DNA of 45,323 nt from a virus, in IMG/VR virus record IMGVR_UViG_3300019888_000007, positions 1 through 45,323 of that record; one strand, given 5' to 3'. The translations under genes were made by a program, and so were the position numbers. This document shows positions 111 through 33,278 of the stretch, piece by piece (within the stretch, counting starts at the first letter, position 1; each line of letters opens with the position of its first letter). The notes under the pieces are model-generated. The model saw only the letters and a list, made by a program, of their open reading frames with translations. It had not been told where the DNA came from and made no database searches.

Positions 111-602
111 ATGGCAAATAGATACATAAAAACTGAGAAAGAAATTGAATGTAGAACTTGTAAGAAATTATTTTATGTTGAACCATATTTATTGAAATCT
201 GGGAGGAAAAAGTATTGTTCAAATTTATGTCTTTACAAAGGAGATTCTTACACTAAATTATTTGAAAAAGGACATTCTCCTGTCGGTGGTGGGCATAGTA
301 TGCCGCATACAGAAGAAACTAAAAGAAAATTAAGTGGAGAAAATAGTCCCCGATGGAAAGGGGGGATAACACCTTATGGTTATACAGGTAGAAGAATCGC
401 AAGAAAAACAGTTGAGAAAATTATAAATAGAAAATTAAGAATTAAAGAGGTGGTTCATCATATTGATGAAAATACTGATAATAATCATCCATCTAATTTA
501 TTTTTATTTCGACTTGGTTCAGCACATACAAAGTGGCATCATTATTTAAAAAGAATGGGGTGGGTCGGCATATTAAAATCTAATTTATATTTATACCCGT
601 GA
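111..602 (+). CDS. HNH homing endonuclease, NUMOD3-type (free-standing)
   Basis: A protein of 163 residues. The N-terminus has a treble-clef-like CRTC...CSNLC motif (residues about 15-40). A NUMOD3-type DNA-binding motif (HTEETKRKLSGENSPRWKGG, about 66-85) follows, then an HNH_3-like core (VVHHIDENTDNNHPSNL, about 114-130). This is the usual build of phage mobile HNH nucleases that nick or cut DNA to spread their own gene. A TATAAT box at 99-104 ends 6 nt before the ATG, without a good -35 box. The gene ends in a GTGA overlap with the fibre gene. The genes on both sides look complete, so it reads as free-standing rather than intron-borne. Confidence 0.85.
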   Translation: MANRYIKTEKEIECRTCKKLFYVEPYLLKSGRKKYCSNLCLYKGDSYTKLFEKGHSPVGGGHSMPHTEETKRKLSGENSPRWKGGITPYGYTGRRIARKTVEKIINRKLRIKEVVHHIDENTDNNHPSNLFLFRLGSAHTKWHHYLKRMGWVGILKSNLYLYP

Positions 603-3166: not shown

Positions 3167-4115
3167 AAAACTTTTCCAAAATGGTTTAGCCCATGATACT
3201 AGAAGTGATATGGATAAAGCTCGGGATTACAGAAAACCCGAGACTGGCTTGCCCATTACTTGGATTGAAAAACCCGAGAGTGAGTGGAAGCGGTACACTC
3301 CGAGAGAACAATCAAGTTCTCTTTCGTGTATGGCTCAAAGCGGAGCTAAAGCGATAGAAACAATTTCAGGAATAGTGGAATCCGCTCATCCACCATATCG
3401 CAGGAGAAGCAATTATCCTGAAGGCGGAATGTGGACGCAAGATTTGGGCAATTTAATCAAGAATCTAGGCACAACCACTGAACTCCTAGACATATCCCAA
3501 AATCAGAACGAAACGCTCTTAAATCGCACCGTAGACGTTCCTACACCCATAAAAATAGGAGGTTACTTCTTCGTTAATCCTAATAGCATTGATGACATTG
3601 CCTATACTATTCTAAATTACAAACATTGTATTCTAATCGTTCATGGTTGCAAAAAAGAATGGACAGCTATACCGCAAGCAGATTCTCTTGAGATTCCCGC
3701 AAACTACGACTTCGGACACGCCTGTACAGCTATTGATTACTTTTCCTATAAAGGACAAAAAGCCCTTTTAATTGAAGATTCTACGGGACATTTCAATTCA
3801 CTGGACGGAAAAGGAAGAAGGATAATTACGGAAGAGTTCTTAAAGGCTAGAATAGTGGATGCGATGTATTTTATTGTTGAAATTCCCGTTCCTCCTTTCA
3901 AGTTTACCCAGACAATGAAAATAGGAAGCAAAGGGGCACAAGTCGTGGAGCTTCAGAAGTTTCTAAATAAATTTGAGAAAAGCACTCTCATAACAGACGG
4001 CTGGTATGGCTTGAAGACCGCCACAATAGTAAAATTGTTTCAGCAACACCACGGGCTTGTGGAAGATTCCATATTCGGTCTAAAGTCCCGCACAGTTGCT
4101 AATTTAATGATATGA
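3159..4115 (+). CDS. Endolysin: papain/C39-like cysteine peptidase with peptidoglycan-binding domain
   Basis: A 318-residue protein. Residues about 45-240 look like a papain-fold (C39/transglutaminase-like) peptidase: a candidate catalytic Cys57 in SSLSCMAQSG, His187 in FGHACTAIDYF, and Asp207 in LLIEDSTG. Residues 252-318 form a PG_binding_1 domain (MKIGSKGAQVVELQKFL...DGWYGLKTATIVKLFQ). There is no signal peptide, so export through the holin is expected. The minus-strand endolysin (16726-17448) keeps the binding domain but has an M23 catalytic domain instead. The cysteine-peptidase assignment rests on motif spacing and is less certain than the binding domain. Confidence 0.75.
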   Translation: MNKKLFQNGLAHDTRSDMDKARDYRKPETGLPITWIEKPESEWKRYTPREQSSSLSCMAQSGAKAIETISGIVESAHPPYRRRSNYPEGGMWTQDLGNLIKNLGTTTELLDISQNQNETLLNRTVDVPTPIKIGGYFFVNPNSIDDIAYTILNYKHCILIVHGCKKEWTAIPQADSLEIPANYDFGHACTAIDYFSYKGQKALLIEDSTGHFNSLDGKGRRIITEEFLKARIVDAMYFIVEIPVPPFKFTQTMKIGSKGAQVVELQKFLNKFEKSTLITDGWYGLKTATIVKLFQQHHGLVEDSIFGLKSRTVANLMI

Positions 4116-4354
4116 AACACAAAAACAAGAACTACGTAGATAGTCCAAGTCAAGTAAAAATAGACAGTAAACCTCCTTTAACCGACCAAATAAAGAAAGA
4201 TGCCCTAGATGAAATCATAGAAAGAGAATCTCCAAAGTTAAAACCACTGGAAAAGAAGACCAGCCTGCTCCCGAAGGGCTGGCAGGGAAGTTTCTTTCCT
4301 TACTGCATTTTAGTTATTATTTTCGCAGTTGTTTTGTTTCTTTTACTTCGTTAA
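4112..4354 (+). CDS. Tail-anchored small membrane protein, last gene of lysis cassette
   Basis: An 80-residue protein whose ATG overlaps the endolysin stop. The N-terminal 55 residues are charged and the C-terminus is one transmembrane helix (FPYCILVIIFAVVLFLLLR). It is almost the same protein as 16521-16733, with 100 nt (4137-4236) identical to the reverse complement of 16612-16711. This copy is 10 residues longer because of a 30-nt palindrome-bearing insert near 4258-4288. The location after the endolysin suggests a lysis accessory such as a spanin component, but this is unproven. Confidence 0.65.
   Translation: MKHKNKNYVDSPSQVKIDSKPPLTDQIKKDALDEIIERESPKLKPLEKKTSLLPKGWQGSFFPYCILVIIFAVVLFLLLR
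4260..4282. repeat. Palindromic insert inside a coding frame
   Basis: The arms CCAGCC (4260-4265) and GGCTGG (4277-4282) lie inside a stretch of about 30 nt that the paralogue at 16521-16733 lacks. The insert is in frame and adds ten residues (TSLLPKGWQG) just before the membrane helix. A short, GC-rich, frame-preserving palindrome in an AT-rich gene resembles small palindromic elements known to lodge in bacterial reading frames. Confidence 0.6.
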
Positions 4355-4382
4355 AACACCCGCTTCAAAGGGAAACTTGGTT

Positions 4383-4604
4383 TTATAATAAATTTGCTAT
4401 CTCCTCCAAAATCTTAAATATTTTTCTAGCGTAGAATCTTGCAGTCTCCTTGTCCGCTTCGGGTAATTCTCTGTAAGGTCGCCATAACTTCTTCCACCTT
4501 TCTAGTCTTTCTTTGCTTACTTCATCGGATATACTTTTAGAGAAGGCGATGAATTGCTGATGTTCTAGACCTGCGAGGCGTTCCAAAATTTGTTCGTCAG
4601 TCAT
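4383..4604 (-). CDS. Small hypothetical early protein
   Basis: A 73-residue helical, charged protein. The C-terminal part (ERWKKLWRPYRELPEADKETARFYARKIF) follows a pattern seen in many small phage proteins (W...PY.eL.e..K...r..A). It is the last gene of the minus-strand early run and converges on the plus-strand lysis cassette, 28 nt away. Its start overlaps the upstream stop. The function is unknown. It is absent from the related cluster at 44.3-45.3 kb. Confidence 0.65.
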   Translation of the reverse strand: MTDEQILERLAGLEHQQFIAFSKSISDEVSKERLERWKKLWRPYRELPEADKETARFYARKIFKILEEIANLL

Positions 4605-6854: not shown

Positions 6855-7004
6855 CTATTTAATAATAATATACACCGCTAACGCCCCTCCTAGCCAGCCA
6901 AAGTGCCAAGCGTAAGTGGGGAATGAATAAGAACACCCGTAAGTAAGAAAAACCAGTATGAAAGCTATGGGGATGGTTATTAAGTATTTTTCGTAAATTT
7001 TCAT
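6855..7004 (-). CDS. Small membrane protein with two hydrophobic segments
   Basis: A 49-residue protein whose ATG overlaps the stop of the NinG-like gene (ATGA). Hydrophobic stretches at about 8-21 (LITIPIAFILVFLTYG) and about 32-48 (HFGWLGGALAVYIII) suggest two membrane helices. A Cys after LTYG might be a lipobox, but the motif is weak. Early phage membrane peptides often exclude other phages or alter the envelope; which applies here is not known. Confidence 0.5.
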   Translation of the reverse strand: MKIYEKYLITIPIAFILVFLTYGCSYSFPTYAWHFGWLGGALAVYIIIK

Positions 7005-7384
7005 AATAATTTCTTGTAATGCTCAATTTTCTCTAAATATACTTCAGCGTTCCATTTTGTATAGGCGGTTTTTAGAATGTTTAGCATAATTACTTTTTCT
7101 TCGCCGAGCTTTATTCCGTAAATGTATTGGTTGCCGGAAAGATTAATGTTGCAGTTGAAACACTGGGTATGAACATTGTCTTCATCAAAGTATAAAGCAA
7201 GTCCACCGACACTTTTTGGAATGAAATGTCCGGCGTGCGCCCCGCTACCTTCACATCTTCGTGAACAAGTGAAACAAATGTTTTTATCCCTCTTCTTAAT
7301 ATAATCAGAAAATACTTTCCAAAGTTTTCTTTTGAGAACCGGAATCTTCTGCTTACTTTTCTTGCGTAACTTTGTCCGTTTCAA
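7001..7384 (-). CDS. ninG: NinG/Rap-like recombination nuclease
   Basis: A 127-residue protein. A basic N-terminus (KRTKLRKKSKQK) is followed by a zinc-binding CFTCSRRC and the NinG signature GHFIPKSVGGLALYFDEDNVHTQCFNCNINLSGN (about residues 52-86). In lambda, NinG (Rap) is a structure-specific endonuclease that acts on branched recombination intermediates. Here it sits in an early operon with annealing-type and methyltransferase genes, which suits recombination or replication. The protein is shorter than lambda NinG, keeping mainly the nuclease core. Confidence 0.8.
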   Translation of the reverse strand: MKRTKLRKKSKQKIPVLKRKLWKVFSDYIKKRDKNICFTCSRRCEGSGAHAGHFIPKSVGGLALYFDEDNVHTQCFNCNINLSGNQYIYGIKLGEEKVIMLNILKTAYTKWNAEVYLEKIEHYKKLL

Positions 7385-15906: not shown

Positions 15907-16323
15907 TTATGTTGGGTAAAATTTTATGTCTCCCCAATACTTCAATTCTCCTTGTCTGCGTGCTTTCAGAGCATCTTCACGTAATTCGAAAGAGCCAAGA
16001 TGTTTTTTCCCGCCGTCTATTCCTATCTGGGCAATCCATTTTTTTCTATTTTTGCTCCATGAAATTCCCTCAACATTATTATTCCGACAATTATTTTTAT
16101 GAGTAACGAAACGTAAATTTTTCCTGCGGTTATCTAATTTATTTCTGTTTATATGGTCAGTTACTAATCCATCTTTTTTGCCCATAAGAAGATGATGAAA
16201 TTTGACATTTTTGTTATTGAATTTATGGCACGCATATCCTGTCCCACTAATATACCAACGATATTTTTTTACAATATCAAAATCCTGAACATCAAAACTT
16301 ACAAACCAAAAGAGGTCTCTCAC
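15907..16323 (-). CDS. HNH homing endonuclease with AP2 DNA-binding domain
   Basis: A 138-residue protein with GTG start at 16323. The HNH part contains VKFHHLLMGKKDGLVTDHINRNKLDNRRKNLRFVTHKNN (residues about 40-78), with the His/Asn residues of the ββα-Me core. The C-terminus (GISWSKNRKKWIAQIGIDGGKKHLGSF...DALKARRQGELKYWG) is an AP2-type domain. HNH-AP2 proteins are mobile genes of phages. It is free-standing between the lysis cassette and small zinc-protein genes. The N-terminus looks a little short for the family. Confidence 0.85.
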   Translation of the reverse strand: MRDLFWFVSFDVQDFDIVKKYRWYISGTGYACHKFNNKNVKFHHLLMGKKDGLVTDHINRNKLDNRRKNLRFVTHKNNCRNNNVEGISWSKNRKKWIAQIGIDGGKKHLGSFELREDALKARRQGELKYWGDIKFYPT

Positions 16324-31615: not shown

Positions 31616-33278
31616 TTAGGCCGAGGTCAAAACAGAAATTCCTGCGTTATCTCTATTCTCTACTACGCCGTAGAGCAAGTCTGCGGTTGTAAGAGTAGAA
31701 AGATAATCAGGGATGTAATTGCTTTGAACACGGACTCCATAGCGCCCAGTCATTGAACTGCCTAGTGAACCGCCACTACCTAGTGGTGAGGTTGCAAAGT
31801 GCAGAGCGTCTCGGTGCGCTAGCGCGTTGTATCGTCCAGCCGTTCCTGAAACGTATTGCACGTTGTTGGAAACGTAAACCGGAATACCATACAAAGAAGC
31901 GCGAGGTGTCTTGGCTGTCGGGTCATTGACGGGTGAGTTCACTGCCAAAGAGAACTTGTCAATGTTTTGGATTTGCTTCCAAAATACTGATGGATGTAGG
32001 AAAAACCCAACATCGGTAGATGTATCAATTCCTACCGATTCAAGAGCGGAAATTGCCGCGCGAATGTCGCTATCGCCTAAAGCCGCAGTTGAAGCACCGA
32101 CTACCGTGGAGAAACCTTGAAATAAGCTCGCTAGAGCTACTTCCAGTTTCTTTGCCATCGTATAGCCGGAACTCTTAGCATATCTCTCTTGGAGATAATA
32201 AGAGTGTTTTACCTGTGCCGCCTCGCGATCTTCAATCGCAAAGCTAACTTCATACCACTGATCTACGGTTAGAGTAATTTTCGTGTCCGTAGGAGCGTTC
32301 AAAGTTCAATTTTGTTACTCCTCACTTTGAGGGGAGAAACCTCTTCGGATTTCTCTCACTGGTTTCTTTTTGTTATTGCCAGTGTTCAGACTATTACATC
32401 CCTTTCGGGTCTTTTCGTTTAGTCGTTGTAGGTGGCGTCATTTTGCCTTCCTAGGCGTTATCCTCTTCAGGAACTTCGCCGTATATTAGAAAAGATTTTC
32501 ATTAACTTTTAGATACTTAATCAGTGCTTTTAAGATTTTAGGATTTTCTTTTACTAATCCTAGAGTAGTATTACAACCTGTGCATAACCAACCTCTGAAT
32601 TTTTTTGTTGTATGGTTATGGTCGTATTGTAATCCCTTTCTTTGGCTTGAACCAAGAGTTCCACACACTTCACATTTATCGGGTTTGGGCGGAGCGAGTT
32701 TAATTAGATACCTTCGTCTTCCTCCTTTCCAATTCCAATGATTTTCTCCTCTTTGGTATAAACCTCTATCTTTTGAAGCACATTCAACTGAACAATACTT
32801 ATTTAACAGCTCGCCATGTTTTTGTCTCACACACACTTTCTTGCAAACTTCACATTCAAATTCTTGTGCTCCACCTGTCCATCTTGGGTTATTCTCTTTT
32901 CTCCAGTTCTTCGTCTTTTGAATGGAATAACATTTGTGATTACAAAACACTTTCTCGCCTTTTAGAAGACTAGGCGGTCTGTTTACTATTCGGTTGCATG
33001 TATAACATCTCATATAAAGACATCATACTTTGTTTCAGTAGGTAAGTCAATGCCGCTAACTTAACGGCTGTTGCGTTTGTTTTGGCGTTTGCGCCAAATT
33101 CCGTTAGGTTTGGAGTGTAAAGCGCAGAACCTCCACCTGCTAATTCTGAAGAGCGATCTACAAAGAAATCCGCTATCAGAAGTTTCAGCTTGAAGAATTC
33201 ATTGATTTTCTCGCCCCAAAGAAGCGGGATGGATGTGGCAAGCGTCGTGCTTGACATTGACGTGGTTGGATAAGCCAT
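31616..33278 (-). CDS. Major capsid protein, interrupted by a group I intron
   Basis: Two exons: 33278-33058 and 32306-31616 on the minus strand. Spliced length 912 nt, i.e. 303 residues. Exon 1 begins MAYPTTSMSSTTLATSIPLLWGEKINEFF and exon 2 resumes with TLNAPTDTKITLTVDQWYEVSFAIED, and together they match the usual capsid layout (...NA-AVxL-x-x-PT-T-ITLTIxQ-x). The C-terminus includes FFLHPSVFWKQIQN and YGVRVQSNYIPDYL. It follows a scaffold gene, as is typical. Without splicing, the exon 1 frame runs on for about 28 unrelated residues and exon 2 would need a TTG start, so the intron explains both odd ends. Confidence 0.85.
32307..33057 (-). other. Group I intron (751 nt) in the capsid gene
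   Basis: P1: exon 1 end UAAGUU (last base 33058) pairs with GACUUA in the intron (33048-33043), with U.G at the 5' splice site. P7: GACUA (32420-32424) with UAGUC (32389-32393). P8 is CCC-GAAA-GGG (32400-32409). P6 candidate GCCU/AGGC at 32445-32456. P9 candidate CACUGG/CCAGUG. The last intron base is G (32307), as required. The HNH gene 32486-33013 lies between P1 and the catalytic core. Boundaries are inferred from P1 and from restoring the frame. Confidence 0.8.
32486..33013 (-). CDS. Intron-encoded HNH endonuclease (endonuclease VII-like)
   Basis: A 175-residue protein. Two N-terminal zinc motifs (CYTCNRIV...CNHKC and CEVCKKVC...CSVEC) and two NUMOD-like motifs (NNPRWTGG near residue 42, NHWNWKGG near residue 92). 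The nuclease core LQYDHNHTTKKFRGWLCTGCNTTLG (about residues 127-151) is the recombination endonuclease VII type. It would cut intron-less capsid alleles and so spread the intron. It lies entirely within the predicted intron. Confidence 0.85.
   Translation of the reverse strand: MRCYTCNRIVNRPPSLLKGEKVFCNHKCYSIQKTKNWRKENNPRWTGGAQEFECEVCKKVCVRQKHGELLNKYCSVECASKDRGLYQRGENHWNWKGGRRRYLIKLAPPKPDKCEVCGTLGSSQRKGLQYDHNHTTKKFRGWLCTGCNTTLGLVKENPKILKALIKYLKVNENLF

What the first reader, a model, noticed from the sequence alone, without database searches (positions are those of the whole stretch)
31616..33278. Group I intron with its own HNH nuclease inside the major capsid gene
Exon 1 runs into a foreign frame and exon 2 has only a TTG start. 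An HNH gene sits between. P1 pairing of exon 1 (UAAGUU) with GACUUA, U.G at the splice site, P7 GACUA/UAGUC, a GAAA-capped P8 and a terminal G all fit a group I intron. Splicing restores a 303-residue capsid protein with an uninterrupted family-like junction. Phage group I introns favour conserved genes; one in the major capsid gene means virion output depends on RNA splicing.
Basis: partly seen in the sequence, partly recalled or inferred. Interest (0 to 1): 0.8.

Follow-up and report, generated by a model that had tools for sequence, protein, structure and literature searches.

The report
Group I intron in capsid gene
An uncultured phage's main shell-protein gene is interrupted by a self-splicing RNA insert (a group I intron) that carries its own DNA-cutting enzyme; such capsid-gene introns are already known, but this one belongs to a ribozyme family that Rfam's group I model misses and that has entered the same gene at several places in related phages.

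Summary
The finding is right in substance. On the minus strand the major capsid gene is split by a 757-nt group I intron (33063-32307) that encodes an endonuclease-VII-like HNH protein. An allele from a related phage (L042, 96% DNA identity) lacks the insert and reads exactly across 33064|32306, and the great majority of fetched relatives are uninterrupted. Eighteen introns at four nearby sites in this gene all have exon 1 ending in U, a P1 with U.G at the splice site and a terminal G. Helices P3, P4, P6, P7 and P8 covary strongly across 11 introns. The spliced protein has 301 residues, not 303. Rfam's group I model does not detect this intron, but it does detect (69 bits) an intron at the same site with a homologous nuclease. 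Introns in capsid genes are known (mycobacteriophage LittleE, shown by RT-PCR; crAss-like phages), so this is a new member of a known kind. Newer side result: a model built from these introns finds 118 matches in 79 uncultured-phage loci, many in or next to major-capsid genes. Splicing itself is not shown here.

The parts
33064..33278 (-). exon 1 of the major capsid gene (215 nt, ends ...GCCGU)
   Evidence: aligns without gap to intron-less allele L042 up to 33064; gapless family junction
32307..33063 (-). group I intron, 757 nt
   Evidence: absent in L042 and in most relatives; core covariation
32486..33013 (-). endonuclease-VII-like (His-Me finger, HNH type) homing endonuclease ORF, 175 aa, in the P2 loop; its last codons overlap P2' and P3
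   Evidence: Pfam Endonuclease_7 8e-17, PHROG endonuclease VII, nearest solved relative Hpy99I 3fc3
31616..32306 (-). exon 2 of the major capsid gene including stop codon
   Evidence: PHROG major head protein; family profile matches PDB 9jwb major capsid protein, E 1.4e-22
33064..33068 (-). P1 5' strand, exon GCCGU; U33064.G33056 wobble at the 5' splice site
   Evidence: same geometry in 18 of 18 introns of this gene
33052..33056 (-). P1 3' strand GCGGC (internal guide sequence)
33058..33062 (-). P10 strand AAGUU, pairs with the first five bases of exon 2 (AACUU, 32306-32302)
   Evidence: direct reading of sequence
33046..33051 (-). P2 5' strand AUUGAC, pairs with 32506-32501 GUUAAU
   Evidence: direct reading; equivalent pairings with base changes in L014, L026, L038, L044, not counted formally
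32489..32495 (-). P3 5' strand UCUUUUC (inside the last codons of the nuclease ORF)
   Evidence: 5 of 7 pairs change on both sides across 11 introns
32410..32416 (-). P3 3' strand GAAAAGA
32477..32480 (-). P4 5' strand GGCG; 3' strand CGCC at 32457-32454
32450..32453 (-). P6 5' strand UAGG; 3' strand CCUA at 32432-32429
32420..32424 (-). P7 5' strand GACUA
   Evidence: compensatory GACCA/UGGUC in L042
32389..32393 (-). P7 3' strand UAGUC (with GACUA forms the guanosine-binding helix)
32400..32409 (-). P8 CCC-GAAA-GGG
   Evidence: all 4 P8 pair columns change on both sides
32357..32384 (-). P9 hairpin CACUGG/CCAGUG
   Evidence: direct reading
32384..32497 (-). conserved ribozyme core found by model R1
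   Evidence: 100.8 bits, E 1.2e-16, only strong hit in the window; this sequence is in the training set
32307..32307 (-). terminal guanosine (omega G) of the intron
   Evidence: G in 18 of 18 introns

Best explanation
A mobile group I intron in the major capsid gene. The capsid transcript folds into a P1-P10 ribozyme; exogenous guanosine bound in P7 attacks after U33064, the freed exon attacks after G32307, and the ligated mRNA encodes an uninterrupted 301-residue capsid protein. The P2-loop ORF encodes an endonuclease-VII-like nuclease that cuts intron-less capsid alleles so that repair copies the intron in. Shown here: precise insertion, core covariation, splice-site pairings, restored frame, empty and occupied alleles. 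Inferred: splicing in vivo and cleavage/homing.
For: Empty allele L042, 96% DNA identity, exact boundaries. Of 80 best full-length relatives, 71 are contiguous. 18 introns at 4 sites with exon-end U, P1 U.G and terminal G, and gapless spliced frames at sites A, B1 and B2. Core covariation in 11 capsid-gene introns and in 118 matches from pattern-found loci. Held-out capsid introns L040 (91 bits) and L041 (77 bits) found by the model. L057: same site, homologous nuclease (60% identity), Rfam group I 69 bits. Nuclease domains. ORF-less versions in L006 (208 and 252 nt) show that the RNA core exists without the nuclease ORF. Capsid identity.
Against: Rfam RF00028 gives no match for the window intron even at E 10. 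No transcript data. AlphaFold model of the capsid protein was poor (pLDDT 46), so the fold was not confirmed by structure. Nuclease activity and target untested.
Confidence: 0.95

Rival explanations
1. The insert no longer splices (degenerate intron), and the capsid protein is made as two polypeptides or not at all, as reported for the nuclease insertion in Aeh1 nrdA.
For: Such a non-splicing split gene is described for Aeh1 nrdA (cited in PMC7344957). No RNA data here.
Against: Exon 2 has only a TTG start. All catalytic helices are intact and covary. Junction and frame are exact. Nuclease ORF is intact.
Confidence: 0.04
2. A free-standing HNH gene or intein-like insertion, or another intron class (group II).
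For: Rfam group I model silent on this copy.
Against: The insert has a stop codon in the exon-1 frame, so it is not an intein. Group I P3-P8 topology with covariation, U.G at the splice site and terminal G. No group II family match in the window insert.
Confidence: 0.01
3. Assembly artefact joining unrelated sequence.
For: Single contig for the window; the identical contig L033 starts downstream of the intron.
Against: Independent contigs L014, L026 and L057 have the same insertion at the same base with homologous nuclease.
Confidence: 0.005

Closest known systems
Mycobacteriophage LittleE capsid-gene intron (PMC3706429)
   Same: About 0.8-kb likely group I intron in the major capsid gene with an intron-encoded nuclease; splicing shown by RT-PCR and N-terminal sequencing of the capsid protein.
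   Different: Different phage group; nuclease is LAGLIDADG-like and antisense to the capsid gene; here it is an endonuclease-VII-like HNH protein in sense orientation.
Introns in capsid genes of crAss-like phages (PMC7886860)
   Same: Group I introns recurrent in the capsid gene; one Zeta-group capsid gene is split into five fragments.
   Different: Different phages; there introns were recognised mainly by their nuclease domains. Here per-site splice junctions and core covariation are worked out.
T4 td intron / I-TevI
   Same: Group I intron with an ORF in a peripheral loop.
   Different: T4 td scores 40 bits with Rfam and is not hit by our model; its nuclease is GIY-YIG.
Hpy99I / T4 endonuclease VII nuclease family
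   Same: Nuclease domain matches Pfam Endonuclease_7 and Hpy99I, including the DHNH and CxxC motifs.
   Different: Used here as a presumed intron-borne homing nuclease with extra N-terminal cysteine-rich modules.

Membership tests
Group I intron | Exon 1 ends in U paired with G in P1 | tested here: met
   18 of 18 introns of this gene, P1 4-8 bp
Group I intron | Intron ends in G | tested here: met
   18 of 18
Group I intron | Conserved core P3, P4, P6, P7, P8 with the P3/P7 pseudoknot | tested here: met
   99.6% of cells paired, 15 of 24 pairs with changes on both sides, 0/500 shuffles
Group I intron | Match to Rfam RF00028 (a detection model, not strictly a defining feature) | tested here: not met
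   No match in window. td is also below the model's cut-off. L057 at the same site does match
Group I intron | Self-splicing with guanosine | not testable with these tools
   needs RNA experiment
Group I intron subtype (IA2, IB ...) | Match to a subtype covariance model | not tested
   subtype models not available here
Homing endonuclease, endonuclease VII / His-Me finger type | Nuclease domain with catalytic and zinc motifs | tested here: met
Homing endonuclease | Cleaves the intron-less allele | not testable with these tools
   occupied and empty alleles at the same base are consistent with it
Phage major capsid protein | Sequence match to major head protein families | tested here: met
   phrog_267 in 16 of 16 members; PDB 9jwb and 8e16
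Phage major capsid protein (HK97 fold) | Predicted fold | tested here: inconclusive
   model confidence too low

The most novel reading that the evidence does not exclude
These introns form a ribozyme lineage missed by Rfam RF00028 that is specialised for virion structural genes: it has entered one capsid gene family at four sites, each tied to its own nuclease type and loop position, with nuclease and ribozyme core exchanged independently at one site (L057), and it has also entered other major capsid and portal genes of uncultured phages.
Probability: 0.5. Interest if true: 0.6.

Novelty: new member of a known kind. Interest (0 to 1): 0.45.

Why it matters
The capsid protein is needed in hundreds of copies per virion, so virion output would depend on efficient splicing. 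The family gives natural occupied, ORF-less, degenerate and empty alleles of one gene, at sites as little as 6 nt apart, which makes intron gain, nuclease loss and site choice directly comparable. It also shows that standard gene calling truncates such capsid genes and that Rfam's group I model misses this ribozyme family.

Tried and rejected
Rfam at gathering and at E 10: no group I hit in the window. Direct hits in cultured phages: none for exon 2 of the capsid protein or for the whole intron. AlphaFold of the capsid protein: low confidence, not used; no fold search run. R1 on the T4 td intron: no hit. Promoter inside the intron upstream of the nuclease (TTGACT-17-TATGAT, 33050-33022): one found against 2.3 expected by chance, not claimed. 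L045/L050 weak R1 hits (19.5 bits) lie in a coding-looking region upstream of an uninterrupted capsid gene: judged chance.

Full report
What is there. On the minus strand, downstream of the terminase and two further head-region ORFs, a capsid gene is split. Exon 1 (33278-33064) runs into a foreign frame and stops at 32970 after 102 aa; exon 2 (32306-31616) has only a TTG start at 32302; between them lies a 175-aa ORF, 33013-32486. Exon 2 matches PHROG major head proteins starting at profile position 98, so an N-terminal part is missing from it. Full-length relatives match phrog_267 (16 of 16), and the family profile matches two solved phage major capsid proteins (9jwb, E 1.4e-22; 8e16).

Exact boundaries. 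54 related loci were fetched from viral contigs. Most encode the capsid protein in one piece; in a second, profile-based scan 71 of 80 were contiguous (that scan favours contiguous genes). The close relative L042 is 96% identical in DNA and has no insert here: its positions 3839-3996 and 3997-4425 align to window 33221-33064 and 32306-31878 without gaps, and its sequence GCAACAGCCGTAACTTTGAACGC is exactly the window's joined exons. The intron is therefore 33063-32307, 757 nt. The spliced protein is 301 aa, with ATAVTLNAPTDTK at the junction as in dozens of relatives.

Group I character. In 18 introns of this gene family the exon ends in U, the U pairs with G in a P1 of 4-8 bp, and the intron ends in G; joining the exons gives a gapless frame at sites A, B1 and B2, and at site C in L067, while for the other site C introns the frame was not printed by the script. 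For the window, P1 is GCCGU/GCGGC, P10 is AAGUU/AACUU and P2 is AUUGAC/GUUAAU. I cut out the core (P3 to P7) of 11 introns; the three site-A cores had their P6 extension removed. Alignment A1 was scored with a named structure: 99.6% of cells paired, 15 of 24 pairs changed on both sides, covariation score 0.567 against 0.163 in shuffles and at most 0.173 in slid versions. The structure was drawn from these sequences, so cells paired leans towards it, but the changes on both sides do not follow from that. P3 alone takes forms such as UCUUUUC/GAAAAGA, UUCUCUC/GAGAGAA, UCAAUUC/GAAUUGA and UCACUUC/GAAGUGA. A covariance model from these (R1) found two capsid introns not used in training, L040 and L041, at 91 and 77 bits, and 118 matches in 79 loci selected by a P7/P8 pattern. 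The pattern fixed P7 and part of P3, but P4, P6 and most of P8 were free; all four modelled helices covary in that set. That set includes three training introns (L067, L076, L104).

Rfam. RF00028 does not see the window intron, and gives 12 bits for an ORF-less relative. As a control it gives the T4 td intron 40 bits, below its own cut-off of 50. At the same insertion site, L057 carries a homologous nuclease in an intron with a different core that RF00028 scores 69 bits. So the site is a group I site independently of our model. Subtype-specific group I models exist (PMC11835236) and were not available here.

Nuclease. The window ORF has an endonuclease VII domain (Pfam 8e-17) nearest in the PDB to Hpy99I. 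Related nucleases in introns at sites B1 and B2 are 43-62% identical. L038 shares the N-terminal half (53%) but has another HNH domain at its C-terminus.

Four sites, one gene. C after codon 4 (L014, L016/L067, L040, L041, L225): NUMOD3/HNH-type ORFs near the 3' end, reduced in L067. A near codon 18 (L005, L006, L042, L214, L217, L219): LAGLIDADG ORFs in the P6 extension, truncated in L214, absent in L006; within this site L006 lies 1 nt away in frame from L042 and L005. B1 at codon 72 (window, L006, L014, L026, L057) and B2 two codons later (L038, L044): cysteine-rich HNH ORFs in the P2 region, absent in L006. L006 and L014 each carry two introns. Site and nuclease type go together, as expected if the nuclease chooses the site; this is inference.

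Mechanism. Splicing by guanosine attack and ligation follows from group I chemistry and is inferred; homing by the nuclease is inferred from the occupied and empty alleles. Unspliced transcripts would give a 102-aa truncated product.

What is known. Capsid-gene group I introns are not new: LittleE (spliced, shown by RT-PCR and protein sequencing, PMC3706429, which also cites lactococcal phage Tuc2009) and crAss-like phages, one with its capsid gene in five pieces (PMC7886860). Jug phages have many group I introns with splicing seen in metatranscriptomes (PMC12363816). This is therefore a new member of a known kind.

Wider observation, only partly followed. Of 36 pattern-found introns followed by an open frame of at least 50 aa, 16 fall in clusters whose representative is a major head protein (phrog_9953, phrog_1357, phrog_283/P22 coat) or belongs to this family, and others precede portal genes. 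The GenBank record MW202674 has a P22-type coat gene annotated as two CDS with an R1-type intron between them (71.7 bits). The pattern was derived from capsid introns, so enrichment is suggestive only.

Noticed in passing
L006:3376-3996: One capsid gene with two ORF-less group I introns (252 and 208 nt) at sites A and B1; both matched by R1.
   Followed up: yes
L057:2920-3478: Intron at the same site as the window's, with a homologous nuclease but a different group I core that Rfam recognises (69 bits): core and nuclease seem to have been exchanged.
   Followed up: partly
L038:3240-3887: Nuclease with the same N-terminal cysteine-rich half as the window's (53%) but a different C-terminal HNH domain: domain swap.
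   Followed up: partly
L253 (MW202674.1:16569-18084): P22-type coat gene annotated as two CDS, with an R1-type intron (71.7 bits) between them in a GenBank phage record.
   Followed up: partly
L119, L121, L130, L097, L065: Several R1-type introns (3-4) close together within and around one gene region, often a phrog_1357-like capsid gene: possibly capsid genes with three or more introns.
   Followed up: partly
window 111-602, 7001-7384, 15907-16323: Three more ORFs that by eye look like HNH/zinc-type nucleases; R1 finds no intron core next to them, so they are probably free-standing.
   Followed up: no
L083/L103/L097 and others: A frequently split protein family (about 190 aa, 'QGTGNADSMLRGSGSQW') next to R1-type introns, without a match where searched (L083 in PHROGs and Pfam, L103 in Pfam and PDB).
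   Followed up: partly
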